In this document: positions 2,825 to 55,683 of the stretch, piece by piece | Position numbering within the stretch: the stretch's first letter is position 1 | How the letters are laid out: each line of letters opens with the position of its first letter | Assembly (NCBI GenBank): GCA_013115135.1 | Contig: JABANP010000188.1 | Span: 27,557 to 91,556, forward strand | DNA: 64,000 bases | Direction of reading: 5' to 3' | Source of the DNA: Perkinsus olseni | Taxonomy: Eukaryota > Perkinsozoa > Perkinsida > Perkinsidae | The notes under the pieces: generated by a model | Databases searched by the model: none | Told to the model about the DNA's origin: nothing | The model's input: the letters and a program-made list of their open reading frames with translations, nothing else | Made by a program: the position numbers and the translations under genes

Positions 2825-3678
2825 ATGATGTGAGTTCAGTTAGAATGCCAGCTTTGGCCACCCCCTTGGTCTTCGATTCTGTTGGAAGGGTCGTCGTCTT
2901 TTGTGTCAGGTCGGAGGTCTCGATGAGCGTACATCCCCTGGCGGGATATTTGCTCAGGGCGATTTTTATAGCGCTCTCGTTGGCTGCCAATGCGGCTATG
3001 ATGTCCTATTATATAGAAGCCTTACAAAAACGTAGGGTGCCGGGATTGAACCGGGGACCTTCAGTAGTGGTACTTCCCAGGCACAGCCCTGCAAGCTACC
3101 GTCATGAACTTCGGCGGCAACTTCCTGTTCTCCTCTATTTTCGGCGTTATCTTCTTCGGCGAACGGATGAGTCTGACCTGGCTCCTAGGGGCAACATCCA
3201 TCCTTACCGGAGTGGTAAGCTGCTGCTGGGCCGGGAGACACCGAACGACGGAATCTGCTCTTGGTCTTGAGCGGAGCGAAGCCGCTGTAGTCGTCCTATG
3301 GAAAGCGACTATAGCCGCTTCGCTCCGCTCAGAATATGATATTATATTACTGTAATGTTTAGTAGGAGTAGCATAGTAATACATAGTGTCTAGGGTTATC
3401 ATTCTCCAAGATGCGCAATAGGTGTCCTCTTCATTTAAAGTATCGTCGCACGCGATCGCACATTCCCCCGCCGTCGATGCCCCTAAACCAGCGTGGAGGC
3501 ACTCAGTGTCGTCCCCATATGTTCCCCCCCAATTGCAATCGCGCGCGCCTCACTTTAAACTCGCCCAATAAATTGACCAATCAAGCCACTGTTCATGTCT
3601 ACATACGGGTATCTTCCGTAGGTGCTGGTGGCAGCGGGAGGCAGCAGCAAGCAGGCCGCAGAGAAGAAGGAACGGTGA
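2825..3678 (+). CDS. EamA/TMEM42-like small multi-pass membrane protein
   Basis: Proposed exons are 2825-2829, 2910-3031, 3081-3214 and 3622-3678, joined in phase to give 105 residues. Three hydrophobic segments are visible. The signature is that of half-size EamA drug/metabolite-transporter proteins: AANAAMMSYYIEALQK, then ATVMNFGGNFLFSSIFG, FFGERMSLTWLLGA and ILTGVVLVA, ending in a lysine-rich tail (KQAAEKKER). TMEM42 proteins share this layout. They are presumed transporters of the secretory membrane system, and the substrate is unknown. The 5-nt first exon is speculative, and the N-terminus could lie in another exon. The 49-nt second intron carries a tRNA-like motif, and the 407-nt third intron a long hairpin. 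Confidence 0.7.
3032..3080 (+). repeat. 49-nt intron containing a tRNA 3'-half-like sequence (antisense)
   Basis: The donor is GTAGGG and the acceptor CCCAG. The middle reads GCCGGGATTGAACCGGGGAC, the reverse complement of a tRNA T-stem/T-loop (GGTTCAATCCCGGC) with the adjoining variable-arm bases. The intron is fixed by phase: joining 3031 to 3081 restores KRTALQATVMNF in the EamA-like protein. Confidence 0.7.
3268..3331. repeat. Hairpin with 26-nt arms inside an intron
   Basis: Positions 3268-3293 and 3306-3331 are inverted copies with two mismatches and a 12-nt loop. The outer arms hold GCGGAGCGAAGC, a 12-mer that recurs in introns and exons elsewhere in the window (4219, 12402, 34013, 58061, 61546). 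It lies in the third intron of the EamA-like gene. Confidence 0.85.
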
Positions 3679-4045
3679 CGATGTAATCGATTGGCTTAGT
3701 TTCTGCAACCCACTGGCATTGCTTGTGTTCAGCGGAGCGGAGTTTATTCTCCTCGTGAAGATCATCATTTCTCGATGATGCCCCGATGGCTGAGGAGTCT
3801 GAGTCAAGAGGAGATCGAGGACTTGTGGGAGGTGAGCAGTCTACACGCGGTGAGCATGGCCCTCTCGGATCGTCGTCGATGGTCACTCTGGTAAAGCGTA
3901 TGACGCAGTAGAGGTGTTTTTGGTGGATGTCGCTCCTCCGGGAGCTCAGGATCGAATCCAAGGTTGATCATAGTAAGATACGAGTGACCTCGTATCAATC
4001 CTGAGCGCCGCAATCGTTCTACTGTTCTGCGCTCTCACTATGTTA
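3679..4045. other. Intergenic, no supported gene
   Basis: Both strands have open frames of about 100 codons here, but neither shows a domain, a signal peptide or a convincing splice pattern. The minus-strand frame starting near 3961 is serine/arginine-rich and looks like antisense noise. Confidence 0.4.
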
Positions 4046-4107
4046 ATTATAAATACGAAAGACTCATTGAATTTGGTTACCAAATTTGAGTCTTTCGTAT
4101 TTATAAT
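4046..4107. repeat. 62-bp near-complete palindrome
   Basis: Arms of 21 nt (4046-4066 and 4087-4107) are perfect inverted copies. Between them, AATTTGGT at 4070-4077 pairs with ACCAAATT at 4079-4086 around a single T, leaving a 3-nt bulge. Almost the whole element can fold as one stem. It is AT-rich against a GC-balanced background and is not inside a recognised exon. Confidence 0.95.
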
Positions 4108-4202
4108 TTTCAAATTTTGATAGCAACCTTTTTGCCGAGGGATCGTGCTAGTTCTATCCTCCGCCTGGAACAGTCGGTGGTGTATCTCCCTTCCCTTCCG
4201 GC

Positions 4203-5157: not shown

Positions 5158-5393
5158 GGGGGGGGAGTGTCCGCCACTCGAGCAGTCAAAGCGGCACCTG
5201 CCCTGTCCAGTACTAGCCGCTCGGGGTTGTTCCCCTACTCGCAGTGGTGTGGCGATATCGGGAACGGTGGGTCGTTCGAGTGCAGCGCAGACTGAGAAGT
5301 AGTGGAGGGCGTAAAAGTTAGGGAAACTCAAGAAATTGCAAGTGTGGTAAGGAATTGGTGATCAATAATGGAGCGGTTCCTAGCGAGAAGCTA

Positions 5394-7371: not shown

Positions 7372-7455
7372 GTATATGTATCTGAAGGGATTCCCCATAG
7401 TAGTCCCTTTGGCTCTCGCTAGCGTTCAATCCGAGATGGGGTGGCTGACCGTTGT

Positions 7456-8369
7456 ATGGGGTTTTCAGGCGCTCCTCTGCGGTTGAGTCCGCTAGAAGCT
7501 TCCCTGTCTTCCACTCATTCTCTGCTTCATGTTAGTTACGGCTTGGTTGTGGTCCCGCCATCCGAGACCGAACTTTTTCCAGCTTCACGCGACCTCCTGA
7601 GGCACCTCGTTTGTCCAGCCGACCCCGACGTTGTGGAGCCGATTCTCTTAGTCGACACCGGTGGCGATGGGATGAAGTTTTACACTCAGCGGTCTTTACC
7701 ACCCGTGAGTCCTTGACGCGGAGAATAGACTGTAATCTTTCCACTCAGGGAGCGCCGCGGATGGGCGATGTAGACGTTACCGCTATCTACGGTGGTGTCA
7801 GTGACAGCAGAGACACAGATTCCCTTCGCTTGTGCCTCGACATCTCTCGAAAACGGGATGGGAAGATGGGCTTCCTAGTGGTGGGCCCCTGGTGCCGACG
7901 GCGAGAGCTCCACTCAGGTGAGCTCAGGATTTTCGTGGGAGAACATGACCGCCGTGCTTTCAGGGTCTCAAAAACACCCACGAACTGATACGCCAAAACG
8001 GCTCATTGATTTTGGAAGGGTCCGTGGCGGAGCTCATCGAAGTGATGGAGGATCACACGTCCTTGCCGGAGAGGCATTTGGTATGGAAAAACGCCGAGCC
8101 CAGGGATCGAACCCGCCTCCTATTTCAGCTCAAGCTCTGGCTTAAACCACGCGAATTCAGCACGATTGCTCATATTACCGAAGCCGTGAAGCAGACGTCT
8201 TCCAGTGCAGTGGAGGGTTCAGTCGTCATCAAGCGACGCGGTGTGGCGGTAAGGTTAACCTTACAACATGCGCGCCGTTTTACCTCTTTCTCAGGTCGGG
8301 CCTCGCCCAGCTTCGTTCCTCAGCTCATTCTGGCTGATAAGCGGAGATGTTTTGGAGCAGTTCCTATGA
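7456..8369 (+). CDS. Hypothetical 230-residue protein, five exons
   Basis: The exons are 7456-7704, 7749-7880, 7964-8080, 8129-8248 and 8295-8369. Each length is a multiple of three, so all four introns (44, 83, 48 and 46 nt) are phase 0, which supports the model. The protein includes LLVDTGGDGMKFYTQRSLPP, MGDVDVTAIYGGVSDSRDTD, THELIRQNGSLILEGSVAEL, LIEVMEDHTSLPERH and a C-terminal FLSSFWLISGDVLEQFL. It has no signal peptide. I do not recognise the family. The third intron carries a tRNA-like motif. The start at 7456 is the first in-frame ATG. Confidence 0.55.
8081..8128 (+). repeat. 48-nt intron containing a tRNA T-arm-like sequence (antisense)
   Basis: It begins GTATGG and ends TTTCAG. The core CCAGGGATCGAACCCGCC is the reverse complement of a T-stem/T-loop, GGCGGGTTCGATCCCTGG. 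The flanking exons are in phase 0 on both sides. Confidence 0.65.
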
Positions 8370-15930: not shown

Positions 15931-15942
15931 GCTCCAGCGTCC

Positions 15943-17357: not shown

Positions 17358-17759
17358 CTAAACCGTTGGAGGGAATGGCAGGGGGAATACCGACAGAATA
17401 ATCTGATGACCATGGTATAGAATAGTAAAGGTGTCGTCAGCGCGACAGTAGGGGATTTTCTTCCAGTCCTCGACGTTGAGGTCGTACTTCTCCGCAAAAG
17501 CCTTGAAGTTTTCATCAGTTGTCTTCAGCTCCAATACAGACCCATCCGGGTTCACATCCCAGGGAATGTCACCCGTGACGTCGACTATGAGGGGGGTGTC
17601 CTTGGGATTTATAATGAAGATATTGACAATGTTCGGGGGCTTGAACGACCACGTGCTCTTGAAGAATTCGTTGCCCGAGTTGAAGTATATCCTATTCGGC
17701 GGGAAGGCGGCCACCCTTTGGAGAATGGCGATCACCAACAGAATGAGGGAGCGACCCAT
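17358..17759 (-). CDS. Secreted-family protein, copy 1
   Basis: A single exon encodes 133 residues. Residues 1-20 (MGRSLILLVIAILQRVAAF) form a signal peptide, basic then hydrophobic. The mature part starts with PPNRIYFNSGNEFFKSTWSF and continues with the family core: VTGDIPWDVNPDGSVLELKT, DENFKAFAEKYDLNVEDWKK, IPY and DDTFTILYHGHQIIL. The start was chosen because the same ATG position and upstream block are conserved in the paralogues, although an ATG further upstream is in frame. It is the first of six minus-strand paralogues at 17-30 kb and is closest to copy 2. It contains a single cysteine. Function is unknown; the family looks like an exported, lineage-specific set. Confidence 0.8.
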   Translation of the reverse strand: MGRSLILLVIAILQRVAAFPPNRIYFNSGNEFFKSTWSFKPPNIVNIFIINPKDTPLIVDVTGDIPWDVNPDGSVLELKTTDENFKAFAEKYDLNVEDWKKIPYCRADDTFTILYHGHQIILSVFPLPFPPTV

Positions 17760-18162
17760 GCGAAGTGGTACACTACAGAGCGGTCTGATCAACAACAAGC
17801 ATTACTGCATCGGCAAATTTTGCCGGGCAAAAACTCAACTCGAACTTCCCTGAACGCATCGACGGTATCGCATCTCTTCGTATGCGTGTTGGTGACAGGG
17901 GACGCCCTTGTCCCCCAACGAAAGTAGCGCATTCAATGCTTCAAACCTGCAGATTCGAGGATTCTGATCGATCGTTCCTCCAAGCATGTGCCTCCTGCGA
18001 GCCTCTGGGACGGGGCGGCAGTTTCGCTATTGCAGAGGGCATATCTTAGATGGTCGAGGGGGTTGACCCCTTTCGTTGTGTCCGGCGAAAACTGTCTACC
18101 GAGGATACAGCGAAGCTAGAACCATGGGCGGCTTGATGGTTTGGGGCACATCGGCCTTCTAG

Positions 18163-18400
18163 TTTTCTGAATTGCGAGTATCTTGACGACTCGCATATTG
18201 CGAGGATCAACTTTTCGTAATCTTGTTTTCGAACTGACGGAAGGGGTTCCACACTGTGATGGCTAATGCGTTGCGCCCTTCTCGCTCGACACGCACATAG
18301 TAGCGCTGCCCAGGGGAATGCTAAACGCCCTGTTCCTGGTTCGTCGAACAAAGCCGAGTTCATTACGCCGCCTGAACTCCAGGAAGCTCTTTTTGAACTA
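18163..18400. repeat. Duplicated upstream flank of secreted genes 1 and 2
   Basis: The sequence upstream of copy 1 (about 17760-18400) is clearly homologous to that upstream of copy 2 (about 19398-20110). The best-kept part is GCGAGTATCTTGACGACTCG at about 18174 and 19920. Similarity extends well beyond the coding sequence, so gene and promoter were duplicated together. A shorter, more diverged trace occurs near 27600. Confidence 0.8.
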
Positions 18401-18522
18401 CCTCGAGTCGCAATTGAATCGATTGTGATAACTGGATCGCCACTGGGTCGGTATTAAATTCGCTACTCATGTTCGCGTCGCCTAGCTAGCCACGAGAGAT
18501 TCCGCGCGAGTGGTGATACGGT

Positions 18523-18990
18523 ATGATGTCTGATCGCCACCTTTGGAATGCACATGGTATGATGAGACCTCAGGCTGAGGTCCTCAGCATCGGAGCCTTC
18601 GACAGCCTCGCATCCCGAGAAGTCCTCTCGCATTTGCTGAACCTAATCGGAACAGACAGTCTTTCAGATGTATGCGTGGATTGGAGTCACTCGATGGGGC
18701 TCCACTCGAGTGTAATTACGGCGAAAGGGACTGCACTAGCCTCGCAGGCGGGGCTCGCGGAGGAGTGAAAGGTTCTCAAACTCGAAGGACATATTCAACT
18801 ACTCCGAAACTGCTCCAGCACTGCCAACGCAAGCGCACGTCGCTCAACTCTGCTCGATTCGAGCTCTCGAGGTATGCTGTGAGCAAAAAAAGTTAGCATA
18901 GAATGAATCTAAATACCTCGGCTTCTTGCTAATATTCTTCCGAGTAGACGTTAATCTCGTCCGGAGTGCGCAAAGCCTCGCATGACTGCT
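18523..18990. repeat. Duplicated downstream flank of secreted genes 2, 3 and 4
   Basis: This block matches 20840-21310, and its last part matches 23235-23400. Shared words include TCGCAACGGGGCTCGCGGAGG-like sequence (18735 and 21055) and GCCAACGCAAGC. The order and orientation relative to the genes are the same in each unit, which marks tandem unit duplication rather than scattered copies. Confidence 0.75.
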
Positions 18991-18995
18991 TGAGG

Positions 18996-19397
18996 TTATT
19001 GCAACGGAATTGGCCCGGTATATGGCGCAAGAACGATAAGATGACCATGGAATTGTATAGTGAAGGTGTTGTCATCAACATTAAAGGGGATGTTCTTCCA
19101 GTCCTCGACATTGAGGTGGTACTTCTCCACAAATGCCTTGAAGTTTTCATCAGTTGTCTTCAGCTCCAGTACATACTCATCAGGGCTCACATCCCAGGGA
19201 ATGTTACCCGTGGTGTCGGTTACGCAAGGGAAGCGCTTGCAATATATAATAATGAAGATATTGACAACATTCGGCGGCCCGAAAAACCACACGCTCTTGA
19301 AGAACTCATTGTCCACGTTCAAGTATGTCTTATTCGGGGGAAAGGCGGCCACCCTCCGAAGAAAGGCGATAACCAACAGAATGAGGAGGCGAGACAT
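18996..19397 (-). CDS. Secreted-family protein, copy 2
   Basis: A single exon of 133 residues, the same length as copy 1. The signal peptide is MSRLLILLVIAFLRRVAAF. The core follows: PPNKTYLNVDNEFFKSVWFF, TTGNIPWDVSPDEYVLELKT, DENFKAFVEKYHLNVEDWKN, IPF and DDNTFTIQFHGHLIVL. The frame remains open upstream of this ATG to 19721, but that extension covers a foldback insertion and is not conserved in paralogues, so the start at 19397 is preferred. Copies 1 and 2 differ at scattered residues, mainly in a variable stretch (residues 43-57) before the IPWDV motif. Confidence 0.8.
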   Translation of the reverse strand: MSRLLILLVIAFLRRVAAFPPNKTYLNVDNEFFKSVWFFGPPNVVNIFIIIYCKRFPCVTDTTGNIPWDVSPDEYVLELKTTDENFKAFVEKYHLNVEDWKNIPFNVDDNTFTIQFHGHLIVLAPYTGPIPLQ

Positions 19398-19442
19398 ACG
19401 AAGTGGTACACTGCATTGCGGCTTGATCAATGAACAAGCATT

Positions 19443-19557
19443 TCTGGGGGTGGTCAATAGACCTCCACTGAATTCCAGAAGCGCTCCCAGGATTGAATTT
19501 GACGTGCGGAAGATGATTCTGGGAGCACTCCTGAATCCAGGTCTATTGAACACCCGG
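19443..19557. mobile_element. Foldback/MITE-like insertion
   Basis: About 115 bp with inverted ends: TCAATAGACCT near 19453 and AGGTCTATTGA near 19540. Internal arms also pair imperfectly (AGCGCTCCCAGGAT against ATTCTGGGAGCACT). It interrupts the duplicated upstream flank of copy 2; the equivalent place in copy 1 (between AACAAGCATT and ACTGCATC near 17800) lacks it. Presence in one duplicate and absence in the other dates the insertion after the duplication, or marks a precise loss. No transposase is encoded. Confidence 0.7.
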
Positions 19558-20650
19558 ACTGCATCAGCAAAAGACCCAACTTGAGCCCCCCAGCACGCAT
19601 GAACGGTATCTGCAGATCTTCGTATGCGCCTTTTGGCTCCGTCGAGGGCAGCAGATTCCATACTCCGAACCTGCAGGTTCGAGACTTCTGATAGATTTTC
19701 CTCCAAGCATGTGCCTCCCACGAGGTCGTGGATCTGGGCGGCGGTCTTGCTATCACTGCAATAGTATTGCAGAGAGCATGACTTGGATGGCCGTATGAGT
19801 TGAATCTTCTCTTTGTGTCCGGCAGAAACTGTCTACCGTGGGTACAGTGGCGCTACCAGCTAGAATCACGGACGGCTTGATGGTTCATGACGCATAGGGC
19901 TTTTCATTTTCGGAGTGCGAGTATCTTGACGACTCGCAAGTTGCGAGGTTCAACTTCCTATAATTTCGTTTTCGAACTGCCGGGAGTGGTTCGGAACCAC
20001 TGGTTCCACACTGCGATGGCTGTCGGGTCGCGCCCCTCTTGGAGTAGCGCTGTCCCGGGGAATGCTGCACGCCCTGTTTCTGGCTCGTTGAACGAAGCCG
20101 AGTTCATTAGTAATGCTTCGGAAACTTTCCGTGGTTTCGGGAGTACTTTTCATACACCCTGGATTCATTACGCCGCTGAACTCGAGGGAGCTTCCCTAGA
20201 GCTAACGGACGTCGGAATCGAATCGCGTTTATCTCAGGCGTCTCTGCGGAGGAGAGAAGTCATTCCGGCAGTTAATAGTGCTATTGTATTTTGCAGAGCT
20301 ATTACCCCTGCACACCGCTTCCGATGCGGCTCGAGTACCTCCTCGGAGTGTGGCTGCGGCGCGCCGGTTAGGGATTTCCGTCGCGACCTGCTGTCGTGTG
20401 CGTTCTTGATACCTGCGCGGGAGGCGGTGGCTGAAGGAGTGCCCTACCATCTCTACGAGATGGTGACGGATTTGAAGCGTCGCAGGTCATTCAACCGTCC
20501 TTCAAAACTCTCTAAAAACCTCAGAAGACCGCTATTGTGTAGAATTGGCGCGACATACAACACGGTGTATGAGGAAATCTTCCATCACCAGGCGTCTAAC
20601 TCGGCAAGAGTCTAACGAAGCCGGACCCGGCGTTGGACTATGAACTCACA

Positions 20651-20675
20651 CACACCAGCCGTGACGGCTGGTGTG
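20651..20675. repeat. 25-bp palindrome with a single-base centre
   Basis: CACACCAGCCGT, a central G, and the exact inverted copy. The arms are 12 bp with no mismatch. It lies in non-coding sequence between secreted genes 2 and 3. Confidence 0.95.
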
Positions 20676-21315
20676 ACCGCTCGTGACGGCCGTCGGAATC
20701 GAAATGCTTATGATAAGTGGAGCGTCACTGGCTCGCTATCAACTTCGCTACTCATGGCCGCGAGCCCACCGCTGCTTGATAGGCTGAGCTATGCGCAACT
20801 CTTGTCGTAACTCTTGTCTTGAGGCACAGGTGAGCGTCGTGCTACGATATAAAGTCCGATCGCTACATAGGAATGCACATGGTATAAAGGGACTTCAGTC
20901 GAAGTCCTCGAAAGTCACACATCCCGAAGAGGCCGCTCGCTTTAACAAAACCTGGTCGAAACAGACATCGTCTTTCATATAGAGAGTGCGTAGGATAGAG
21001 TCACTCGATCGTGTTCCATTCCAGTGTAGTTTTCATACCGCGAGGGGAACTCCACTAGCCTCGCAAGCGGGGCTCGCGGAGGAGTGAAGGCTTATCAACC
21101 TCGAATAACATACTCAGCTGCTCCGCAATTGCTCCAGCACTGCCAACGCAAGCACACATCGCTCAACTGAGCTCGATTGGACTTCTCGAAATATGGTGCG
21201 AGCAAAAAAGGGCAGCATACAATGAATCTGAATATCCCGGCTTTCTTGCTGATGTTTTTCCGAGTGGGCGTTCGTCTCGTCGGGAGTACTCACGGCCTCG
21301 TTCATCTCTATGGGG

Positions 21316-21711
21316 CTACGGTGGAAAGGGTTCGGTAGACGGCCTGAGAACGATTCGTTCACCATGGTATGGTATAGTAAAGGTATCGTCGAAGGGGTCG
21401 TAGGGGATGTTCGCCCAGTCCTCGACCTTGAGGTCGAACTTCTTCGCGAAAGCTTTGAAGTTCTTATCAGATGTGTCGAGGTTCAACAGAATTCCGCAAT
21501 GGTCCACCTTCCAAGGAATGGGGCCGCAAGGGTAGATTGGGAACGGGAATCGACTTTCTGGGGTGATCGTGAACGTGGCGATAGTACCATCAGAAAAGAA
21601 GTACCACGCAGTTCTGAACTCACGGGCCTTGCTGACGTAAAGCTTATTGGGGGGAAAGGCCGCCACCTCATACAGGAAGGCCAGCAGCAACGGAGTGATG
21701 AGGTGACACAT
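21316..21711 (-). CDS. Secreted-family protein, copy 3
   Basis: A single exon of 131 residues. The signal peptide is MCHLITPLLLAFLYEVAAF. The mature part begins PPNKLYVSKAREFRTAWYFF. The core is IPWKVDHCGILLNLDTSDKN, FKAFAKKFDLKVEDWANIPY and DDTFTIPYHGERIVLRP. Copy 4 is nearly identical, so these two are the most recent pair. Compared with copies 1 and 2, the first half (residues 30-60) is rewritten while the FKAFA...VEDW...IPYD...DDTFTI half is kept. Two cysteines occur in copy 3 but one is missing from copy 4, so a conserved disulfide is unlikely. Confidence 0.8.
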   Translation of the reverse strand: MCHLITPLLLAFLYEVAAFPPNKLYVSKAREFRTAWYFFSDGTIATFTITPESRFPFPIYPCGPIPWKVDHCGILLNLDTSDKNFKAFAKKFDLKVEDWANIPYDPFDDTFTIPYHGERIVLRPSTEPFPP

Positions 21712-22882
21712 AGGAAGCGATACACTGCAGAGCCACAGAGACGATAGACTCAATCTAGTGTGGGCTCTCATCAAGATACTCGACAAGAAAGGATGTCTTC
21801 ACGCACAGTCATGGTCAATACATTACACACAGTTGCACATTGCATTGCCGCACGCGATGTGTGTCCCTAATAATTGGGGGCCTAGGGCCCCTTTCTTAGC
21901 ATCGCTGAACGATTTCCCACCCATTGTCTCCGCCAAGTCTCCTGATGCTCCCCCTGTCAATGTCCCTTTTTGCTGCGACGGATGTCGTGGTTTACAAGTC
22001 GTGACCTTTCTTCCCTCTAAGCTAACCCTCTTTCACTGTTTTTCCTCGCTAAAACGCCCGAGAAGGATGGTAATAATGTTCAGGATTTTTGATTAATGCG
22101 CGAAGGTGGCACACAGGTCCAAGCGTGCGAGTTGGCCCATAAAATGTGACGCGATCGATCACTGTGTAGGAGAAAATCGGCCTGACTTGAGCGTTCGTTC
22201 CTCCCTTTGCCTCGCATCTATTACACTTGTCGAGTTGAACATTGATAATACTCATCATGCGTAGGCCACGCAGTGTGGCTTTGCACTACGCTCGCCAATA
22301 GGTTCGCTAGAAGTTCTAGCCTAGCACTAGCTTCGTAGCGAATGCATAGCGTGATGAGCGTGACGTCGAGTTCAGCGAGAGCCTAAGGGGCTGCATACTG
22401 TCTGTAGCCGCGACGTTCTGTCCAATTGCCCGCTTCGAGTGGCAGCTCACTGCCGTGTACATTACGTGAGGTTAGCCTTCCTTCTCACGGACTTCTTCCT
22501 GGAGTCTTCCTGTAGTAGTAAGGCAGACTGGCGCACTCTTGATGGTAACGCAAATCATGTTTTGAAGTCGAGAACACTCCAGTCCGATGCTGATTGGTGA
22601 CTGCGAAGAAGAGACATCTCGTATTTTTCATTGGTCGAAGGCTCCGGACGCCTTCGGTCAGATCGCCGTTTTCCAGCGCGGTATATGAGGTCGTCCACGA
22701 CATGCATCATCACCGAGGGCGTCTTCCACAGCGGAATAGCATTATAGCGAAATGATCGGCGATACTGGCCTCGATGGTGGCCGTGCAAGTAACCTCGGAA
22801 TCGATGGTCAGCATGGCATAAATTGACCTTGAAGACCGTAATCGGTAGAACTATGATGATGAGAAACGCCCGAAATCCGAGG

Positions 22883-22948
22883 ACTCAGGAAGTCACTTCC
22901 TGAGTTGTCTAGGACTTCCTCAGTCCTGGCGCTGGACTGTCCAGCGCC
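22883..22948. repeat. Pair of single-base-centred palindromes
   Basis: Positions 22883-22905: ACTCAGGAAGT, centre C, exact inverted copy (11-bp arms). Positions 22928-22948: GGCGCTGGAC, centre T, exact inverted copy (10-bp arms). They lie 22 bp apart in the non-coding stretch between copies 3 and 4 (21712-23403), where I see no supported gene. The minus-strand frame at 22555-22788 is a weak candidate only. Confidence 0.95.
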
Positions 22949-23403
22949 TGCTGAGTCTTGCTCCAAGGGATTGATGGATGGGGCCTTTTAAGATGCTGTG
23001 ATGTTAGCTTACTTTTCGGTTGAATTATTACTTTTAACAAATGGCATCCTAATGTTATTGTTGACCATAACTTGAGTTTCAGCGTTGGATGATAGTTCGG
23101 TTGAAATTCGCAGAGTTCGTGATTCTCAAAGTGTGAATGCCGACAAGTAGGCTACGGTAGCGGGTAGGGCGACGTCACCTATGTGAGGAAACAGGCTATG
23201 GAGGGGTTAAAACTATTCCGCTGCCCCAACACTTAAATTAAGCACACATCGCTCAACTCAACTCGAGTTGACTTGTCCAGTTATGTAGTGAGCGAAAAGG
23301 ATAGCGTATGATGAATCTGGATAACCCTGCTTCTCGCTATGGTTGCCCGGAGTCCGCATCCGTCTCATCGGGAGTACTCACGGCCTCGGTTGCCTCCATG
23401 AGG

Positions 23404-34700: not shown

Positions 34701-36847
34701 ATTTGGAGTGGACTCTCCTGAAAGGGAACCCATCCACCCCCCCCCCCTCCTCTGCTGGCTCCCACCTGTCAGCATGGACTCATTCACTACCGCTGAGGAC
34801 CCGGCAAGTATCAGCATGTCCGCCGGCACCACCTGAAGAAGCTGACGTCGACGAGCCCAGGGCGACCGCGAGGGGCTACCGGATTGTTAGTAGTCACGCA
34901 GACGATGTCTCCTGGTAGAAGTCGGCTGGAGGGGATGAACGTCCAGCGCCCTTCTCGAAGCACTGCGAGCTCGTAGATTGGGGGCTTGATCGAGCGTATC
35001 TCGGACATGTCTCTAATGCGCCGCTTTATCTGACAACGAGACTCGCTTTTGGCCGCTGAAAGCGAGGTGGGAGGCTGGGGTACCGTCATGATCTCCAGCA
35101 TCACCAAGAGGATTATCGTCATCAGAGAGTAGTACCAGTAACTGCCATAAAACATGGACCACGTTGAGCTATTCTGCATCTTACAAGCTCAACCCGAAGA
35201 TTCGATATACTACTAGACTTACTCATCGAACAGCCACAGTAGCCCGCATATCATTTGGAAGACAAAGAATGGGGCGGTTACGTGTTGCAGCAGCAGCTCC
35301 TGAAACTTGGGAACCTGAGTACGTCAGTTTGCCGGGATTGAACCGGGAACCTTTCGATTACGAACTCACAGGCAGATTAAGGGTATTGTCAAAGTAAGTG
35401 CCCTCCGCTTTAGCGATCTCCTCTTCTGACAATCCGCGACTGCTACTATAGAAATCCAGTGTGTGGTCGACAGGGTATCTGATAAGCTCTAGGTCTCGGG
35501 TTCAATTCCCGGTCACGTCACAAAACTGTACTTTCTACGCCCATCGAACGGAGTTCCGGAAGCCCGAATTTAGTGTCTGGTAGTACAAACGCGTAGCATG
35601 GCCCGAATCTGCCGTCCATCACTCATTATGGGAACGACCAACCAAATGCGGATATACGCGACGCTTCGAACCCATTACACGGCACCGGCAGCCGAATCGA
35701 CGCGCATCCGAAACGGCAGTTCCGACGGTACTAATTCTTCTCCGAGAGGTGCAGTGAACCCGACCCGCCCGCTAGGCCATGTTACTACTTTGGTCGATGG
35801 AACGTGCCATCCTTGGGGTCAAGCAAGAGCTTCTTTCTCTGATAATCAATCCAGACCTGGTCTCCATTCCGTCGTTGTATTGGACAAAGCAACGACTTCT
35901 CAGATGTGACCACTCTGCAGAAACAATCAGATTGGACCAGAAAGCAAGCACCAATCAGAGATCAAGCCCTGCGCGATTCCGCGCGAAATTTCTAGCACTG
36001 GCTGGGCGTCAATCTACGATACCATGCGATGATTCTATTGAGGAAGAACTCTGTCGTACTCTGTCTCTCACCATAAACAGTCGAGCGAAGCCGCGGCCAA
36101 ACGGCAACACGAATGAGCGGAACTAGGATATTCGACAATTACTCGATGTCCCAGATGGTCTGTTGAAGAAGTAAAGCGAATCTATCACAACCTCGCCCAT
36201 AATTACTTCACATGAGTGACCTCCGAAGTGTAGGACGGTAGGCGGGTGAAGGCTATGAGGCACCGAGCTGCTACCGACCAATGGCCCATAAGATGCAGCA
36301 ACAGATGAGCTAGGCCACTGAGAACCTGGCAACGTCGGAGTCATGGGAGTGCGGTCACTGGACTCGAAGCTGAACACTCGGACGCTTCTCGGAGCAACGA
36401 CGAGCTATGCCCCGCTCGGTTCTAGAGTAATAGCGTTATAAAGAGAGGCATTGGGATACTAAACTCCGACACAGTCACCATGCAGAAGTTCGACGAGGAG
36501 AAAGCCGATCACGAATTACTTAGAACTCACGGACGCAAAGCGCTGACGGAAAATGACCCAGAAATCGGGAACGAATATGATTATTCTCGACTCTAGAGGT
36601 ATCCTCTATGCGAACAGAACGCCGCCAACGGCCTCATCCTCCCCCCTACTACCAGTGGAACGAAGTGCTCCAGTTCCCCATCATCCCTTATCTCCACTGA
36701 GGTCATGAGCCAAGCATGCAGTATGAGCCATAGAGGGCCGTCAAGCCTGTACAGCAAGGACCTCTCCTTGTAGAAGATGAAATGCCGTTTCCGCCACTTC
36801 TGGGGCTCCGTTGATGAATCGAGATCACCGAGATCAGGGTCAGACAT
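31710..36847 (-). CDS. ATP13A1: P5A-type ATPase (Spf1/ATP13A1 family)
   Basis: The first exon, 36653-36847, encodes [18 protein letters not shown] and the first membrane segment ([15 protein letters not shown]). Exons between 36652 and 35522 are unresolved. From there 13 exons join in phase: 35370-35478, 35223-35314, 34880-35168, 34766-34832, 34563-34717, 34412-34517, 34247-34364, 34048-34204, 33891-33994, 33638-33765, 33256-33517, 33008-33205 and 31710-32955, giving 1009 residues. Motifs include [27 protein letters not shown] (actuator loop), [14 protein letters not shown] (the P5A-type PPELP motif), [13 protein letters not shown] with the phosphorylated Asp, [18 protein letters not shown] and [19 protein letters not shown]5A ATPases remove misinserted transmembrane helices at the endoplasmic reticulum. 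Two neighbouring introns carry tRNA-like motifs. Confidence 0.95.
35315..35369 (-). repeat. 55-nt intron with a tRNA 3'-half-like sequence (sense)
   Basis: On the gene strand it runs GTGAGTTCG...GTACTCAG, with GGTTCCCGGTTCAATCCCGG in the middle, a T-stem/T-loop with its pairing partner strand. Splicing joins NTLNLP to [11 protein letters not shown] of the P5A ATPase in phase 0. Read on the plus strand, it is almost the same as the motif at 3041-3060. Confidence 0.75.
35479..35521 (-). repeat. 43-nt intron with a tRNA T-arm-like sequence (antisense)
   Basis: On the gene strand it begins GTGACG and ends TATCAG. Read on the plus strand it contains TCTCGGGTTCAATTCCCGGT, a T-stem/T-loop. It precedes the exon [20 protein letters not shown] of the P5A ATPase. 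It is separated from the previous tRNA-like intron by a single 109-nt exon. Confidence 0.7.
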
Positions 36848-40941: not shown

Positions 40942-42943
40942 ATGCCAGCAGGTGTAGCGGACCATTACGCACTACCAGTCGCAGCCATCACTACTGCCGG
41001 CTTGGCTGTCATCAGTTACTTCGTCTATCATAAATACCGAGACCAGAAATCTGGCCAGAAGAAAGTCCCCGCAGGTGCAGCAGCGGTAAAGATACCTGAC
41101 GATGATGACCATAAGGTATTCATTTATTTTGCATCACAAACCGGCACGGCTGAAGGCTTTGCCAATGAGCTCGCCGATGAAGCCCAGGAGATGGGCCTCC
41201 ACACTGAAGTCGTTGACTTCGAGGAGTTCGATCCTGACACTTTCGTCGAGCAGAAAAACGTCATTATTTTGGCTGCTACGTACGGTGAGGGAGATCCGAC
41301 CGATAACGCCTCGGAGTTTGCCAACTGGCTCTCGAAGGAAGCTCAACCGGGCTGCCTAGAGAACATGAAGTAATAACGGGGAGGCGTAGTCGTGATGGAA
41401 TTGTTGGACGACGGTCGATCGTGTTGGTGAAGGTCTTTTGCTGATATGCAGGTTCACTGTCATGGGTTTGGGTAATCGGCAGTACGTCCACTTCAACCAC
41501 TTCGCTATTGTGATCGACTCCAAGCTGGCGGAGCTCGGAGCCACCAGGATACACGAACTGGGCTTGGGTGATGACGATGCGGATATCGATGAGGACTTCG
41601 CCAAGTGGAAGGATGAGGGCCTGTGGGAAGCTGTGATGACCCAGATGATGGGCATCCGAGAGCGCAGCGCCTCCAGTGCCTCTGTCGGCGGGAAGAAGGA
41701 ATTGCCTGACGTGAGAAACAAGTTGAACTTAGTAGCAAATTTTGAGAAGGCCAAGACCAACTTGCCTTATGATGCTACTGTCCACGGTGGTGGCATGGAC
41801 GTGATCTCCAAGTTCTACTTCACAGCGGACGAGGCCACTGTGAAGGACATTCGGGAGCTTCGTCAAGAGCCCAATCCTGAAGAGGGGCTCACCACTGTCC
41901 ACTTAGATGTTGATATCTCTACTCTGCCGGCTGCTCGGTACAGAACTGCTGACAATCTGGAGATTCTACCCAGGAATCCTGAGTGGGAAGTCAACGCTAT
42001 TGCTGAACGTTTTGGGTGCGAAGATATGCTCGACATGTACGTGGGTTTTACTCGATCGTTGTCTTGTACAAAAACTGTCGTGAAGAAGCCGTTCCCGACG
42101 CCGTGTACGCTTCGGGAGGCCCTTACGCTTTATTGTGATCTCAATGGTCATCCCACCAAGGCCTTCGTGAGGGACATGTGCTCTACTGAGGCTGGGGCGT
42201 TGGACCCTGATGAGCTGTTGCTAAAGTGGAAGGGTGAGCTTGTCACGGTTACTGAGGCGACTTGCGAGACTTTCAAGGCATCTCCTATCAGCATTGGGGA
42301 ATTTCTGCAAATTGTGCCCAGACAGAAGTGCCGGGCCTATACCATCTCTTCGTCAAATCTTGAGCACCCTAGGATGATATCAACCACGGTTGGTCTGATA
42401 CACCATCCACGATCCGGCAAGGGCCCCTTCAAGGGAGTCACCACGCAGCAGCTGTGTACATCAGCGAGGCCTGGTGACAAGATGTGGGTGCAAGTCAGGG
42501 CCTCCAGCTTCAGACTACCGGCCAACCCAACCGCGCCGATCATCATGATTTCGGCAGGAACTGGTATTGCTCCCATGCGAGCGTTCATGAGAGAGCTCAG
42601 CATCAAGCCTCGACCGGCCGCCAAGAAGATAATGCTTTTCGGATGCCGGTATCGAGACAAGGACTGGATCTATGCTGACGAGACCAAGGAGTTCGCGGAG
42701 AAGTCGGGCTGCAAGCTCTTCACTGCCTTCTCCAGAGAGCAGGCTGAGAAAATCTACGTCCAGGATCTGGTGACGACGACGGCAAAGGCGGACCTTGAAG
42801 AGGCCTTGAAGGGTGATGCTTACGTGTATATATGCGGTACCCAATCGATGGGTCGAAGTGTCATCGAGGCTCTCCGCACGATCGGCGCTGATGTTGACAA
42901 GATGAGGGCTGAGAAGAGGATAGTGGAGGAGCTCTGGGGCTAA
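40942..42943 (+). CDS. POR: NADPH-cytochrome P450 reductase
   Basis: Two exons (40942-41369 and 41452-42943) join in phase to 639 residues. Residues 7-30 (YALPVAAITTAGLAVISYFV) are an N-terminal membrane anchor. The FMN domain has YFASQTGTAEGFA and LAATYGEGDPTDNASEF, then FTVMGLGNRQYVHFN across the intron. The FAD domain has RAYTISSSN and KGVTTQQL. The NADPH domain has ISAGTGIAPMRAFM, LFGCRYRDKDWIYADE and YICGTQSMGRSVIEAL, ending VEELWG. CPR passes electrons from NADPH through FAD and FMN to P450s and related acceptors on the ER membrane. The single 82-nt intron uses GTAATA...ATGCAG. It is complete and of normal family length. Confidence 0.97.
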
Positions 42944-44603: not shown

Positions 44604-46003
44604 ATGGGTGATAAGGCCTTCATTCACGTCGATGCCAAGGACCTTACTGACATGGATGCCCTCATCATTGCTAAGATGCTCCGGTAGTGATCGTGCTCAT
44701 CGAGGGCCCTACTCCTGCGTAGAACCGGTTGAGCCGTCTCTTTGTCAGGTTCCAAAATGCGGAGTGTGAGATGCTTGATATTAATAATAATCCGAGGATG
44801 GGTGACCTTGGAGTAAAGGCGATAGCTGAGCACGTAGCACGGGGGCGGTCTAGACCGGAATATTCACTGGCAGTCTCTGCCGCTCCTAGGGAGTCACTCC
44901 GCAAGTGAGCGAGAGTGACGTCGGGGAAGTGTATGAGCGAACAAGCGAGAGGGACGAATTGCAACGTCCAGTATAGGATTAGATACTGTTGAGAACTTTC
45001 TTAGTCTTGGGTATTGAGGTTGTGGTCGACACAATCATCACGGTGCGGAGTATCATAGCTAACCTTCGAGTCTGGGTCAACGCGGATAGTAATCTCGCTT
45101 ACGACTGAGGTTGCTGTGGTGGAGGCGGAAGTCAGATAATGCTTGCGCAGGTCCTTGGACGAGCCAGTAATGGGCATCCTTTGGAGACGCTGCTGATATC
45201 AGAGGTCAATATGACTGATGAAGGATTAGGTATTATACACGTGCTGGGGATCGAACCGGGGACCTTCCGGTTTGAAGTTGGGTGAGTTCGCTGTTGTTGC
45301 CAGGTTACATTACTGAAGCGTTGAAGACCAACAATAAGCTCCGGCTCTTGGAGATGCGGAAGAACAAATTAACTGATGAGGGGGTTGTCGCCTTAGCGAA
45401 GGTACTGAAGGGTATCACGGCCCATCTGAACGATTCCATCGAATCTGACCATCGCCCGACCAGTCTTATAGAATGCCATTGTGGGAGGTTGAGACCGGGA
45501 ACGCTGCACTGAAGCGACATCACTGTATTAACCGCCAGGTGTTGATCGCAATAGCGTGCCTTACGAGTGGGGATGTTCTTCCCGTTACCATCATCGAGTG
45601 ATCACCGTCTCACGGACTCAGTGTCTTGAGTCAGGTCCTGAAGGATGATAACAGTACATTAGAGTCCCTGTATTTGAATGCTAATCCTGGCCTCACTGAC
45701 ATATCCGCCGAGGTACTCGCTGATGCTGTAGCCGCTCGGAAGGGCAAACTGAAGGTGAGCCACTGCCTGGCAAACTGCGGAATTAACAGTAGCCATGTCC
45801 GCCTGTGGGCATTCCTGTCATCTTACTCTAATGTGGGCTTGTTGGTTTCGCCTCGGTACGCTTGAATGGTCGCCGACTGATAGTTAAGTAGTGCTATAAG
45901 GGTCTATTGTATTTTGCAGGTTGTCCTTCTGGATTGCGAGAACATCAGTTTCTCAGCGAGGGCGCGAGCGACAGCTAGATGTGGCAAGAAAATGAGATTC
46001 TGA
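44604..46003 (+). CDS. Leucine-rich repeat (RNI/tropomodulin-like) protein
   Basis: Six exons (44604-44683, 44749-44833, 45151-45229, 45304-45401, 45635-45754 and 45920-46003) join in phase to 181 residues. The repeats are clear: HVDAKDLTDMDALIIAKML, LDINNNPRMGDLGVKAIAE, LLISEVNMTDEGLGYITEAL, LRLLEMRKNKLTDEGVVALA and LYLNANPGLTDISAEVLADA, closing with VVLLDCENISFSA. The 28-29-residue period with 'LTDEG' and 'ALxxN' is the ribonuclease-inhibitor class, also found in tropomodulin C-termini. It is a protein-binding scaffold, presumably cytosolic. An AG just upstream (44584) leaves only 19 nt of leader, which could suit a trans-spliced leader, but this is inference. Intron 3 carries a tRNA-like motif. 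Confidence 0.82.
45230..45303 (+). repeat. 74-nt intron with a tRNA 3'-half-like sequence (antisense)
   Basis: It starts GTATTA and ends TTGCCAG. It holds GCTGGGGATCGAACCGGGGA, whose reverse complement is a T-stem/T-loop with bases of the variable region. Removing it restores MTDEGLGYITEAL in the leucine-rich repeat protein, phase 1 to phase 2. Confidence 0.7.
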
Positions 46004-46505: not shown

Positions 46506-46551
46506 GAGCGTCCTTTCTTTGGATTCCTTGTTGCTCTCTTCAGTCGCCAGC

Positions 46552-50554: not shown

Positions 50555-50576
50555 TATCCGTCGCTCCTCGTCGCCA

Positions 50577-52285: not shown

Positions 52286-53044
52286 TGCCGCCGTCGTCAG
52301 GATGTAGAGTGAGCAAGCGGACCTGCGCGCGATATCACGCTGTAAATCGGGAGGGAGATGCTTCAATATCTGAACCTCCACCTCGTTGAGAACGTAGTTG
52401 CCCCGGCTTATGACTCTATCGAGAGTGCGAGAGCAAGATTTCTTTCGATCGGCCCATTTGCCAGGAGGCCTTCCCGGGAGAGGCATAGAATATTAGGGCA
52501 ACCCGTGGCAGCAACTGAGCTGGCATACAGTATTAAGCACCGGCGCGGGGACGAGTACAGCTAGAGGTGTTAGATATGGCTATGCTGCCCGGCGGCAGGG
52601 CTTAGACAGCAAACGGCGGTCCCCGAGCACGGATTCGAGGGCAGGCATAACAACAGGGATGTTGCTCAAGGCCTGCCGCTTGAGAAATTCGTGAAAGAAA
52701 TTTGTGACATCCGTGACAAATTTAGGGCGAGCGCGAAAAAAGTATTGACATCGCGGGGAAAAGTGTTGCCTTCGGCAACACTTTTCCCGCGGTTCGGCTC
52801 AAGGGTAGAGTTCGACCCCGGCACCCGGCGTTTTTCTCGAATTATCTGAGGCTAAGCATAATAAGATGAACCGCAGAGGTGTCGTGAAGCTGACATTCTG
52901 GAATCGAAACCTGTTTATGTTGCGGGCAGGAATCAGTCGTGCGGGTACTAAACCAAACTCGAAGGCCCCTGTCTTCGTGGGAGTTGTTTCATCGGGAGTT
53001 GTCTTTCTGTCATAGTTTTACTACCTGTATAAAAACCCGACAGG
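52286..53044. other. Intergenic, weak frames on both strands
   Basis: The minus-strand frame at 52187-52486 (YVLNEVEVQILKHLPPDLQR) looks faintly protein-like but has no start, partner exon or domain I can confirm. The rest, including a strong hairpin at 52756-52788 and the T-arm-like GAGTTCGACCCCGGCACCCG near 52809, is non-coding. Confidence 0.4.
52756..52788. repeat. Perfect 15-bp hairpin with a 3-nt loop
   Basis: GGGAAAAGTGTTGCC at 52756-52770 is followed by TTC and the exact inverted copy at 52774-52788. As RNA it would form a very stable stem with a C-C-UUC-G-G tip. It lies about 260 bp upstream of the ferredoxin gene. Confidence 0.95.
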
Positions 53045-53632
53045 ATGTCATCATCATTAATACGGGCTATGGCTCCTGCACTGGCAAGGGGAGTCGCCCC
53101 AGCCGTCCTTAGCGCTCCTCTGGCCAAGTTCAGTCGAGCCTTCCATGTTGATGCGGCTGCCGCGAAGGGACTTCCAAGCGTCAATATCACCTTTGTCGAC
53201 ACTGATGGTACGAAGAAGGTCGCGAAGGCTCCGATTGGCTGGTCACTGTTGAAGGTTGCCCACTTGAATGGTATTGATCTTGAAGGGGCCTGTGAGGTAA
53301 TAACAGCACGGCAAAGCGAAATGCTCTCGTGATACTTGTGGATTCTCAGGAGTCTATGGCGTGTTCCACTTGTCACTGTATTTTATCGCAAGACCTTTAC
53401 GATAGCCTCCCTGAGCCTTCTGAAGAGGAGGAGGACTTGCTGGACCTCGCTCCGGGATTGGAAGATACTAGTCGACTGGGATGCCAGGTAGTCTCCTCTG
53501 CTGGGTCCCTCGTGTTATGATCACTGTGATGATCAGGTTAAAGTAACGGAAGACATGGACGGGCAAGAGGTGAAGTTGCCGCCTTCCACCGTGAACTTCT
53601 ACGTTGACGGTTATAAGCCCACGCCCGACTAA
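53045..53632 (+). CDS. FDX: Mitochondrial [2Fe-2S] ferredoxin (adrenodoxin/Yah1 type)
   Basis: Three exons (53045-53296, 53350-53487, 53537-53632; introns 53 and 49 nt) give 161 residues, all phase 0. Residues 1-40 (MSSSLIRAMAPALARGVAPA...) are an Ala/Arg/Ser-rich mitochondrial presequence ending near KFSRAFHVD. The domain follows: VNITFVDTDGTKKVAKAPIG, WSLLKVAHLNGIDLEGACEE, SMACSTCHCIL, EEEEDLLDLAPGLEDTSRLG, CQV. Cysteines C-x5-C-x2-C and the later C of LGCQV hold the cluster. This class donates electrons to Fe-S cluster assembly and to mitochondrial P450s or haem A synthesis. The C-terminus matches the family (LPPSTVNFYVDGYKPTPD). Confidence 0.96.
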
Positions 53633-53830
53633 ACAGGAGAGAGCTGTGACGAGGTTCTGATGGGCCAGGCCGAAAAGCTGCCTGGTGCATTGGAGCTGCT
53701 CGACTGTCATCGTGTTGAATTTTCTTCAGTAATGCCATCGCTCGTCTTGGGTTACAATTACTACGGGCCCGTCATCCTGTCCGCAGGGCCATGCTGCCTT
53801 TCTAGCTTGTTGTTAAGGCTTCATTTTGTC

Positions 53831-55683
53831 ATGCTGCGTCTCGCGCAGAGGGGTTTCAGGAGCGCCGGTGGGGTCTTCAGGGAGGCTCGAGGCTTCTCCA
53901 CGATCGGGTTCATCGGACTGGGGAATATGGGCTCGGGAATGGCAGCTAATCTTTTGAAGGCCCAACGCAGCCTGGTCGTCTTTGATAAGATGAAAGACTC
54001 TCCTGGTAGTAGAAACAAGGGGCGTCTGCTCGTTATGGTAGTAGTAAAGTTTTGAGGGGCTTGGACGACTTGTAACAGCTTCTATAATTTTTCTACAGGC
54101 GTGTTTGCCAATCTAAATTTTCCTAGGAGACTTCTGTAAATCTACATGAGTGTTGAATTTAGAGAATTTAACAGATAATATGTTGAAAAAATCAGGTCGT
54201 AAGTATCCGCGGCTGTTGTTGGATCACAGGGGTGGAGCTAGCGATGGTACAGGGGCGTTCGCTCAGGCATCGTCGAGGCTGCTTCTAAAGGAGCTCGAGT
54301 GGCTGGGGATGTGGAGGAGCTGTGTAGCTGTGCTGATGTTATCATTTCTATGGTACCTGGCACTCGAGACGTAGTGGACCTCTACACCGCTGATGGAGGG
54401 GTAAGGGCGATGGCCGGGCTGGCGGCTCAACCTAGAGTGGATTTGGTAGCATAGTCTTTGACGTCCGAGTCCGAGCCTCGCTTCGCTCTAGGCGAGAACT
54501 ACTCTGTTGTCTTTATAACGTGTATACGGACCGTATTCTACATTTACCGTATTCAGAGTGCCGTACGTCAAAGCAAGATTAATACAATGACCTTGAATGG
54601 CTGCCTGACGTGAAATCATGTCCTATAATAGTAATGTCCTAGGCTGATAATAGTAATATTTATGTAGCCTGTACTGTATCTGAGTCTCTCTGCGGAACCC
54701 GGTGATTGAGGATGAGCAGGAAACCTGTTAGTAGTCAAGGTACTTCGTGTGCTACAATGCTTCCCTCACCGCGCATCGTGGTGTATTGCTTCATCGTCTC
54801 CTGCACCTCTTGGCCTGTGTGCTGCTCAGATCCTCTCTCTACTGAAGAAGCCCTCATTCTTAATAGACTGCTCTACCTATTGACCCTATAGCAGCTCAGC
54901 ATGTTATTAAGAAGGCCCAGGAGGAGGGGCACAGGATGGTAGATGCACCCGTTAGTGGCGGAGTACCGGCAGCTAAGGCTGGTGAGCACTGTTCAGCACG
55001 GTATGGAGGTATCGGGTTCGATCCCTGGAGCAGGCACTTTGACGTTTATGGTGGGCGCCGATAGTTCCGATGATTTGAAGGCAGCGACGGAGATTCTGAG
55101 TCCCATGGGCAACCCTAAGTACTGTGGATCAGCGGGCCTAGGGCAGGCAGTGAAAGTGTCGAACAACCTCATACTTGCGGCCAGCATGCTCGGCGTAGCG
55201 GAAGGCTTCCGGCTTGCTAAGTACGCACTGCCACCGTCTGCTTCATCTCCGCTAGAGCGCATCCTCAGGACGCTGGGTGTCGATCCAAAAGTCTTCGCCC
55301 AAATCGTGAACGCCTCCACTGGTCGCTGTTGGAGTTCGGATACTTACAATCCTGTGCCTGGTGTGATGGATAAGGACGTCCCGTCTAATAGGGGCTACGC
55401 TGGAGTAGGCGGGCCCTGCCTGGGTAACGCCATCGATGGGGGAGGTCTCAGGGGTTCATGGTGGACTTGATGGTGAAGGACTTGGACTTGGCGAAGGCTG
55501 CTGCGGAGGGCTGTGGTGCCGAAGTGAGAAGGGCTCGTTGTGTTTGTGATGACTCTGTGCACGTCTCAGGTTCCGGTGGCAAAATTCGCCCGGGAGGTCT
55601 ACGCCAGTGTGGGCGCCAAAGGGCATGGTAGGAAAGACTTCAGTTGTGTGTATGAATATCTCGACGGCAGCAGCAGCAAGTGA
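53831..55683 (+). CDS. HIBADH: 3-hydroxyisobutyrate dehydrogenase, with a one-base frame break
   Basis: Six exons (53831-54005, 54267-54445, 54848-54981, 55034-55404, 55452-55523 and 55570-55683) give 347 residues if one base is skipped. The presequence MLRLAQRGFRSAGGVFREAR precedes the NAD site TIGFIGLGNMGSGMAANLLK. Then come ADVIISMVPGTRDVVDLY, KPSFLIDCST, IDPIAAQHVIKKAQEEGHRM, VDAPVSGGVPAAKAG, the catalytic LGQAVKVSNNLILAAS lysine region, and RCWSSDTYNPVPGVM. The enzyme oxidises 3-hydroxyisobutyrate to methylmalonate semialdehyde in valine breakdown, in mitochondria. Between DCST and IDP the sequence has one extra T (54878), without any intron to remove it. Intron 3 carries a tRNA-like motif. 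Confidence 0.93.
54982..55033 (+). repeat. 52-nt intron with a tRNA T-arm-like sequence (sense)
   Basis: It begins GTGAGC and ends GAGCAG. The 3' half is TATCGGGTTCGATCCCTGGA, a T-stem/T-loop; the AG acceptor lies right behind it. Splicing joins PAAKAG to TLTFMVGA of HIBADH. The same T-loop and following GG are seen at 1486-1509. Confidence 0.8.

What the first reader, a model, noticed from the sequence alone, without database searches (positions are those of the whole stretch)
3032..55033. Short introns built around a tRNA 3'-half (T-arm) sequence, in both orientations
Six introns fixed by exon phase and protein homology carry a tRNA T-stem/T-loop: 3032-3080, 8081-8128, 35315-35369, 35479-35521, 45230-45303 and 54982-55033. 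They are 43-74 nt long, so the tRNA-like part is about half of each. Two are sense to the gene (35315, 54982) and four are antisense. The sequences are related but not identical (GGTTCAATCCCGG, GGGTTCGATCCCTGG, GGTTCGATCCCCAGC). This looks like introns created from, or invaded by, tRNA fragments: a tRNA-derived introner or minimal SINE. I know of no described intron class like this, but I cannot search. The RNA polymerase III B-box is included in each copy, so transcription signals may travel with them.
Basis: partly seen in the sequence, partly recalled or inferred. Interest (0 to 1): 0.88.

Follow-up and report, generated by a model that had tools for sequence, protein, structure and literature searches.

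The report
tRNA-fragment introns in Perkinsus olseni
This single-celled shellfish parasite carries thousands of copies of the tail end of a tRNA, and in the genes that could be checked a copy makes up most of a short intron, which suggests that a tRNA-derived mobile element has been creating introns.

Summary
The window lies in the 61.5-Mb genome of Perkinsus olseni. All six tRNA-like sequences are present. Protein evidence fixes four introns exactly (3032, 35315, 45230, 54982); the fifth (35479) is the 3' end of a 310-nt intron, not a 43-nt one; the sixth (8081) is untestable because its frame stays open. The feature is genome-wide: GGTTCRANNCC occurs 6,046 times against 1,033 for the reversed control, and GGTTCRANYCC + 9 nt + CATTT 545 times against 1. 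The conserved unit is about 35 nt (variable loop, B box, C72, A73, T-run). T-stem pairing outside the B box is no better than shuffled, so this is a tRNA-derived linear module, not a kept fold. Unrelated places share only 35-47 nt at 89-94% identity: the module has dispersed. Seven protein-tested module introns measure 49-74 nt, about as short as plain introns, so the module is most of the intron, not cargo. Splice-like signals are enriched upstream in both readings. Best reading: a tRNA-derived introner-like family usable in both orientations. Retroposition is inferred. No description turned up in eight paper searches.

The parts
3032..3080 (+). 49-nt intron in an EamA-type gene; module antisense (B box 3042-3052 on -)
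   Evidence: deposited P. olseni protein P0241 aligned to the window is spliced here, phase 1
8081..8128 (+). 48-nt putative intron; module antisense (B box 8103-8113 on -)
   Evidence: GT-AG ends and module present; frame open through it, no family found: intron status unproved
35315..35369 (-). 55-nt intron in a P5-type ATPase gene; module sense (B box 35334-35344 on -)
35479..35788 (-). 310-nt intron in the same gene; antisense module in its last 43 nt (B box 35499-35509 on +)
45230..45303 (+). 74-nt intron in a leucine-rich-repeat gene; module antisense (B box 45247-45257 on -)
   Evidence: spliced product aligns gap-free to ribonuclease inhibitor repeats; 28-residue period by my count
54982..55033 (+). 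52-nt intron in a 3-hydroxyisobutyrate dehydrogenase gene; module sense (B box 55015-55025 on +)
   Evidence: no gap at the junction against 2gf2
52800..52834 (+). decayed copy of the module (B box 52809-52819, AGTTCGACCCC) next to a GTTGCCTTCGGCAAC hairpin; intron status not tested
   Evidence: profile score 15.9; Markov control averages 2.0 hits above 14 and 0 above 16
1478..1512 (+). possible decayed copy (B box 1487-1497, AGTTCGATCCC); intron status not tested
   Evidence: profile score 19.8; 0 in control above 16

Best explanation
P. olseni holds a dispersed family of short tRNA-derived elements whose conserved unit is the 3' end of a tRNA gene: variable loop (AAGGT), B box (GGTTCRANYCC), nine free positions, then C72-A73 followed by a T-run. 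Inserted into a gene, a copy is removed as a spliceosomal intron. In sense, the 5' splice site lies at or before AAGGT and the T-run after A73 acts as polypyrimidine tract before YAG. In antisense, the 5' splice site lies beside the complement of the T-run and the 3' splice site follows ACCTTC. The copy makes up most of the intron, so in most cases insertion probably created the intron (introner-like). Likely mobility: Pol III-transcribed tRNA-like RNAs, copied by a host reverse transcriptase with loss of the 5' half. Shown: family, dispersal, intron location, both orientations, fixed 3' end. Inferred: that insertion made the introns, Pol III transcription, retroposition.
For: Excess genome-wide: 6,046 vs 1,033; 21-mer with up to 3 mismatches 1,356 vs 5; fixed 3' end 545 vs 1, roughly a tenth of the excess; subfamily GGCATGYTGYATTT 108 vs 0. 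In 39 matches (two of them true tRNA genes) only -9 to +25 is conserved. Dispersal: a 501-nt query found itself, two further gene copies and 5 other places that match only 35-47 nt at 89-94%; those matches are the module. Seven module introns of 49-74 nt checked against proteins (+53, 49, 50, 71+73, 72, 83). Length: of the 17 ATPase introns 11 measure 42-55 nt, the short module intron 55 nt. In 53 copies GTRNG upstream 42% vs 19-25% background, reverse complement of a 3' site upstream 45% vs 17-28%, T-runs downstream. tRNA origin: element consensus agrees with tRNA genes of this genome at 6-14 of 20 places outside the B box; 2 of 20 fetched tRNA genes also end A73-TTTT; an A box stands at tRNA spacing in some copies (by eye). 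Reverse transcriptases: 150 matches, 150 scored of 421 candidates.
Against: No empty site was found; the one copy-number difference examined is a tandem repeat inside an intron. Two modules lie in longer introns (310 nt; roughly 240 nt in a CAX-type gene, by eye), which fits invasion as well. No full-length source: a 91-nt A-box-bearing copy matches only itself. Copies differ widely outside the core, unlike a young SINE. 18 of 20 fetched tRNA genes lack TTTT directly after position 73, and 18 of 20 have T72 where the element consensus has C72, so the fetched tRNA genes are not its direct source. In one search a plain 3' site is not enriched downstream (30% vs 15-38%) and strong GTRAG only mildly upstream (17% vs 6-13%). 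A coding-potential test failed to separate copies from random places. No target-site duplication was recognised by eye. Splicing rests on protein evidence and deposited models, not RNA reads.
Confidence: 0.62

Rival explanations
1. The element invaded introns that already existed, and deletion then trimmed them back to the usual 45-55 nt. It is an ordinary tRNA-derived repeat that survives best in introns.
For: Modules also lie in introns of 310 nt and roughly 240 nt (by eye); both orientations are tolerated.
Against: The seven protein-tested short module introns measure 49-74 nt, against 42-54 nt for 10 of the 15 plain introns of the ATPase gene: little room for an older intron, and repeated precise trimming would be needed. 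In the casein kinase 2 intron (53 nt) the module reaches the 5' splice site.
Confidence: 0.2
2. The B box itself is under selection in the introns, for instance as an extra TFIIIC site or a splicing signal, so that the motif was kept or arose repeatedly.
For: In a search by flanking anchors that left the B box free (63 places, control 7), 25 of the 29 places with two or fewer mismatches keep all nine invariant B-box positions; several of the 29 are copies of one gene.
Against: 5 of 16 element hits above a control-free threshold in 264 kb have a changed B box, although the profile was trained on intact ones; two gene copies have a changed B box where a third keeps it; 15 of 17 ATPase introns lack the module; copies share sequence well beyond the B box.
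Confidence: 0.08
3. A DNA-transposon introner (MITE type) that happens to include a tRNA end, as most described introners look DNA-based.
For: Most introners are held to be consistent with DNA transposition (PMC9860276, abstract); Perkinsus marinus has Dada transposons that insert into tRNA genes (PMC3706591, passages).
Against: No shared 5' end: the profile is flat 5' of -9, and by eye the distance from 5' splice site to B box varies from about 10 to 34 nt in sense introns. A fixed 3' end with a ragged 5' end fits retroposition better.
Confidence: 0.08
4. Chance matches plus tRNA pseudogenes.
For: About 1,000 of 6,046 B-box matches are at control level; at least two examined matches lie in coding sequence (C1:22510 and L048, by eye).
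Against: 545 vs 1 and 108 vs 0; of 20 loci searched against Rfam only one, a true tRNA gene put in as a control, matched tRNA.
Confidence: 0.02

Closest known systems
Introners / introner elements (Micromonas, Aureococcus and others; survey PMC9860276, abstract and passages seen)
   Same: Dispersed repeats that are spliceosomal introns, in both orientations, with varied splice-site recruitment.
   Different: Most are held to be DNA-transposon-like; the survey's held text has 0 occurrences of 'tRNA' and 'SINE'. Here only a 35-nt tRNA-derived core is shared.
Introner elements of Amoebophrya (PMC7789003, passages seen)
   Same: Intron-borne repeats in an alveolate parasite (kinship to Perkinsus recalled).
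   Different: Those have 8-20-nt inverted repeats, 3-5-nt direct repeats and non-canonical splice sites; here GT-AG ends, and no inverted repeat noticed by eye.
tRNA-derived SINEs (recalled)
   Same: tRNA-derived region with a Pol III box; dispersed; reverse transcriptases present in the genome.
   Different: No shared body or tail and no conserved A box in the profile; shared stretch only 35-47 nt.
Dada transposons in tRNA genes of Perkinsus marinus (PMC3706591, passages seen)
   Same: Same genus, involves tRNA genes.
   Different: DNA transposons of 4,666-10,979 bp inserted into tRNA genes, not tRNA pieces in introns.

Membership tests
Introner | Copies lie in introns of protein-coding genes and are removed by splicing | tested here: met
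   Protein level, seven short introns (+53, 49, 50, 71+73, 72, 83). RNA level not tested.
Introner | Sequence similarity between introns of unrelated genes | tested here: met
   35-47 nt at 89-94%; 108 places vs 0
Introner | Similarity begins at or near the intron ends | tested here: inconclusive
   Near the 3' end in sense copies (by eye); the 5' end varies
Introner | Insertion created the intron (empty site in a relative or allele) | tested here: inconclusive
   Three copies of one gene compared, only a tandem copy-number difference; no relative's DNA was available
tRNA-derived SINE | tRNA-related region with A and B boxes | tested here: inconclusive
   Copies were picked by their B box; an A box at tRNA spacing seen by eye in a few
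tRNA-derived SINE | Shared body beyond the tRNA-related part | tested here: not met
   No conserved block outside -9 to +25 in 39 matches
tRNA-derived SINE | 3' tail shared with a partner LINE | not tested
   Reverse transcriptases counted, tails not compared
tRNA gene or recent tRNA pseudogene | Cloverleaf recognised by ARAGORN or the Rfam model | tested here: not met
   Window: none; 40 loci: 2 genes, both true tRNA genes and not modules; 20 loci: only the tRNA-Ser gene put in as control
Amoebophrya-type introner | Inverted repeats at intron ends and direct repeats over the borders | not tested
   Looked at by eye only; none noticed

The most novel reading that the evidence does not exclude
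A new class of introner of Pol III origin: tRNA 3' fragments, mobilised through reverse transcription, that carry usable splice sites on both strands and have generated thousands of short introns in one genome, possibly from several tRNA sources, with transcription signals (B boxes) left inside Pol II genes.
Probability: 0.45. Interest if true: 0.88.

Novelty: new variant of a known kind. Interest (0 to 1): 0.78.

Why it matters
Where spliceosomal introns come from is a long-standing question, and most caught examples look DNA-transposon-like. A tRNA-derived family that works in both directions and is as short as a minimal intron would add a second, RNA-polymerase-III-linked route. Perkinsus would become a system in which intron birth could be dated between strains. 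It would also put thousands of potential TFIIIC sites into the genome, many of them inside Pol II genes.

Tried and rejected
Coding-potential test of GT-AG pairs around 39 matches, two of them tRNA genes: no separation from random positions (0.18 of matches vs 0.21 of 600 controls above score 2; 0.51 vs 0.41 above 0); too weak with 49 kb of training sequence. T-arm fold as the kept feature: rejected. Kept tRNA fold: rejected. A long repeat body: rejected. Single tRNA source: not resolved; no tRNA gene at hand stands out, and a recalled tRNA-Ala end gives 14 places within 3 mismatches, none exact. T-run as a mere copy of tRNA gene ends: my notebook says that fetched tRNA genes have no TTTT after A73; a recount shows that 2 of 20 do, and the report follows the recount. 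Presence/absence between gene copies: L090 has three units where L091 and L092 have one, which I read as tandem duplication. Literature searches: introner + tRNA (13 papers), Perkinsus + intron + tRNA (51, 20 listed), SINE and intron gain terms (41, 20 listed), introner + Perkinsus (1), a Perkinsus olseni term set swamped by unrelated papers (9,303), spliceosomal intron + tRNA-derived SINE (3), introner + Pol III (1), Perkinsus + repeats (16, 12 listed): nothing like this in the listings. Four papers were opened, by abstract or passages only: PMC7789003, PMC3706591, PMC11782384 (nothing to the point), PMC9860276.
Full report
Setting. The window is part of a 61,483,535-base assembly in 968 contigs. 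The reductase at 41396-42943 is 98% identical to a deposited Perkinsus olseni protein, and an ATPase and an EamA-type protein also find P. olseni records. P. olseni is a parasite of bivalves in a group close to the dinoflagellates (recalled).

Observation. Four introns are fixed by protein evidence. 3032-3080: a deposited protein matches the spliced frame at 100% identity over 96% of the query. 35315-35369: deposited ATPases of three Perkinsus species, aligned to the window, are spliced here, and solved P5 ATPases show no gap at the junction. 45230-45303: the spliced product aligns without a gap to ribonuclease inhibitor repeats, and by my count the repeat period of 28 residues is restored. 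54982-55033: no gap at the junction against 2gf2, though that alignment has gaps elsewhere. The 35479 module lies at the 3' end of a 310-nt intron that starts at 35788. For 8081-8128 the frame is open through the segment and no family matches, so its status is open.

Scale. GGTTCRANNCC occurs 3113+2933 times, the reversed control 499+534. Confirmed tRNA genes are far fewer: 63 matches from 63 scored of 7,618 first-look candidates, a lower bound, and the A-box plus B-box pattern occurs 263 times against 3, by eye mostly true tRNA genes, many in arrays, among the 100 listed. A 21-letter consensus with up to three mismatches occurs 1,356 times against 5. A scan of 264 kb with a softened profile, trained on 71 copies from outside that stretch, finds 19 hits above 16 bits against 0 in three Markov controls. 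Two of the 19 are tRNA genes and one is the opposite strand of another hit, which leaves 16 elements, 11 with an exact B box and 5 with a changed one. The training copies all had an exact B box, so decayed copies are undercounted. Most other steps picked copies by an exact B box, so statements about its conservation rest only.

Anatomy. In 39 matches, two of them true tRNA genes, only positions -9 to +25 relative to the B box are conserved: AAGGTCCC, the B box, then after nine free positions C72 and A73 followed by T-runs. GGTTCRANYCC + 9 nt + CATTT occurs 272+273 times against 0+1. T-stem pairs outside the B box are no better than shuffled in 83 distinct copies; all five pairs form in 10 of 83. 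Those 83 include some gene copies and some likely chance matches. Rfam recognises none of the modules in 20 loci as tRNA. The consensus agrees with tRNA genes of this genome at 6 to 14 of 20 positions outside the B box, which supports tRNA origin but names no single source. Of 20 fetched tRNA genes 18 have A73 and 2 are followed directly by TTTT, as the element is; 18 have T72 where the element consensus has C72. The element's end thus looks like a tRNA gene end with a Pol III terminator, but not like most of the fetched tRNA genes, which were the best-scoring ones and cover few isotypes.

Dispersal. The region of L051 finds itself, two further gene copies and five other places that match only over 35-47 nt at 89-94% identity. 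These five and ten more places with GGCATGYTGYATTT seem by eye mostly to be sense introns. One was tested: in casein kinase 2 alpha a 53-nt intron beginning GTAGGTCCCCGG interrupts a conserved stretch, and the spliced peptide aligns gap-free over 39 residues. A kinesin (49 nt) and a PP5-like phosphatase (54 nt) are further tested cases. The phosphatase gene seems by eye to hold three module introns in a row, sense 60, antisense 51 and sense 54 nt; only the last was tested.

Intron or cargo. In the ATPase gene 11 of 17 introns measure 42-55 nt; the sense module intron is 55 nt. The seven protein-tested short module introns measure 49, 55, 74, 52, 49, 54 and 53 nt. A module of about 40 nt therefore leaves almost no older intron around it. 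Against this, two modules sit in introns of 310 nt and roughly 240 nt (by eye).

Orientation. In 53 copies with enough flank, not chosen by splice sites, GTRNG is found upstream in 42% against 19-25% in six background windows, the reverse complement of a 3' site upstream in 45% against 17-28%, and the reverse complement of a strong 5' site downstream in 13% against 2-9%. The plain 3' site is not enriched downstream (30% against 15-38%), and strong GTRAG is only mildly so upstream (17% against 6-13%). These are five tests on one small set, without correction. An earlier coding-potential test did not separate copies from random positions.

Mechanism. Shown: a dispersed family with a fixed 3' end and a ragged 5' end, located in introns in both orientations. 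Inferred: insertion creates the intron, with the splice sites partly in the element (AAGGT side and T-run side) and partly in flanking sequence; source RNAs are Pol III transcripts; copying is by reverse transcription with 5' loss. The genome has many reverse-transcriptase matches, 150 from 150 scored of 421 candidates, many in open frames over 1,000 residues, but no link to a particular one was tested.

Comparison. The survey of introners (PMC9860276; abstract and passages seen) describes elements mostly consistent with DNA transposition, and its held text has no occurrence of 'tRNA', 'SINE' or 'Perkins'. Amoebophrya introners (PMC7789003; passages seen) have inverted and direct repeats and non-canonical sites. 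The Current Biology paper on dinoflagellate introners was not held and may contain related material. In the eight paper searches listed under Tried and rejected no description of tRNA-derived introners was found.

Verdict. A real, genome-wide and unusual feature. It works like an introner; membership is not complete because intron gain itself, target-site duplications and RNA-level splicing could not be tested here.

Noticed in passing
window 34047-33995, 3268-3331, 34007-34030, 61543-61566: The motif GCTTCGCTCCGC occurs 6 times in the window and 7 times in 200 kb of contig C1, about 0.01-0.02 expected, including inside a 53-nt intron and as a hairpin in a 407-nt intron. It may be a second intron-borne repeat.
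   Followed up: partly
L104 vs L103; window 52753-52776: A GTTGCCTTCGGCAAC hairpin lies upstream of a module in L104 and not in the related L103; the same hairpin lies beside the decayed module at 52809.
   Followed up: no
C1:61655 (L002): A sense module ends GGCACCGCAG some 15 nt before a possible start codon of a gene that reads like PWP1 (by eye); the 3' site could be a spliced-leader acceptor.
   Followed up: no
L090 vs L091, L092: Three tandem copies of a module-bearing unit of roughly 115 nt in an intron of a gene that reads like a CAX exchanger, against one in two other copies of the gene.
   Followed up: partly
window 17371-30416: Five to six diverged repeats that look like paralogues of one short protein family.
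   Followed up: no
window about 54876: A one-base frame slip within the HIBADH gene, without room for an intron; assembly error or allele; left as it is.
   Followed up: no
C778, C172, C142: tRNA genes in regular tandem arrays, some spaced about 170-180 nt, 1.2 kb or 360 nt.
   Followed up: no
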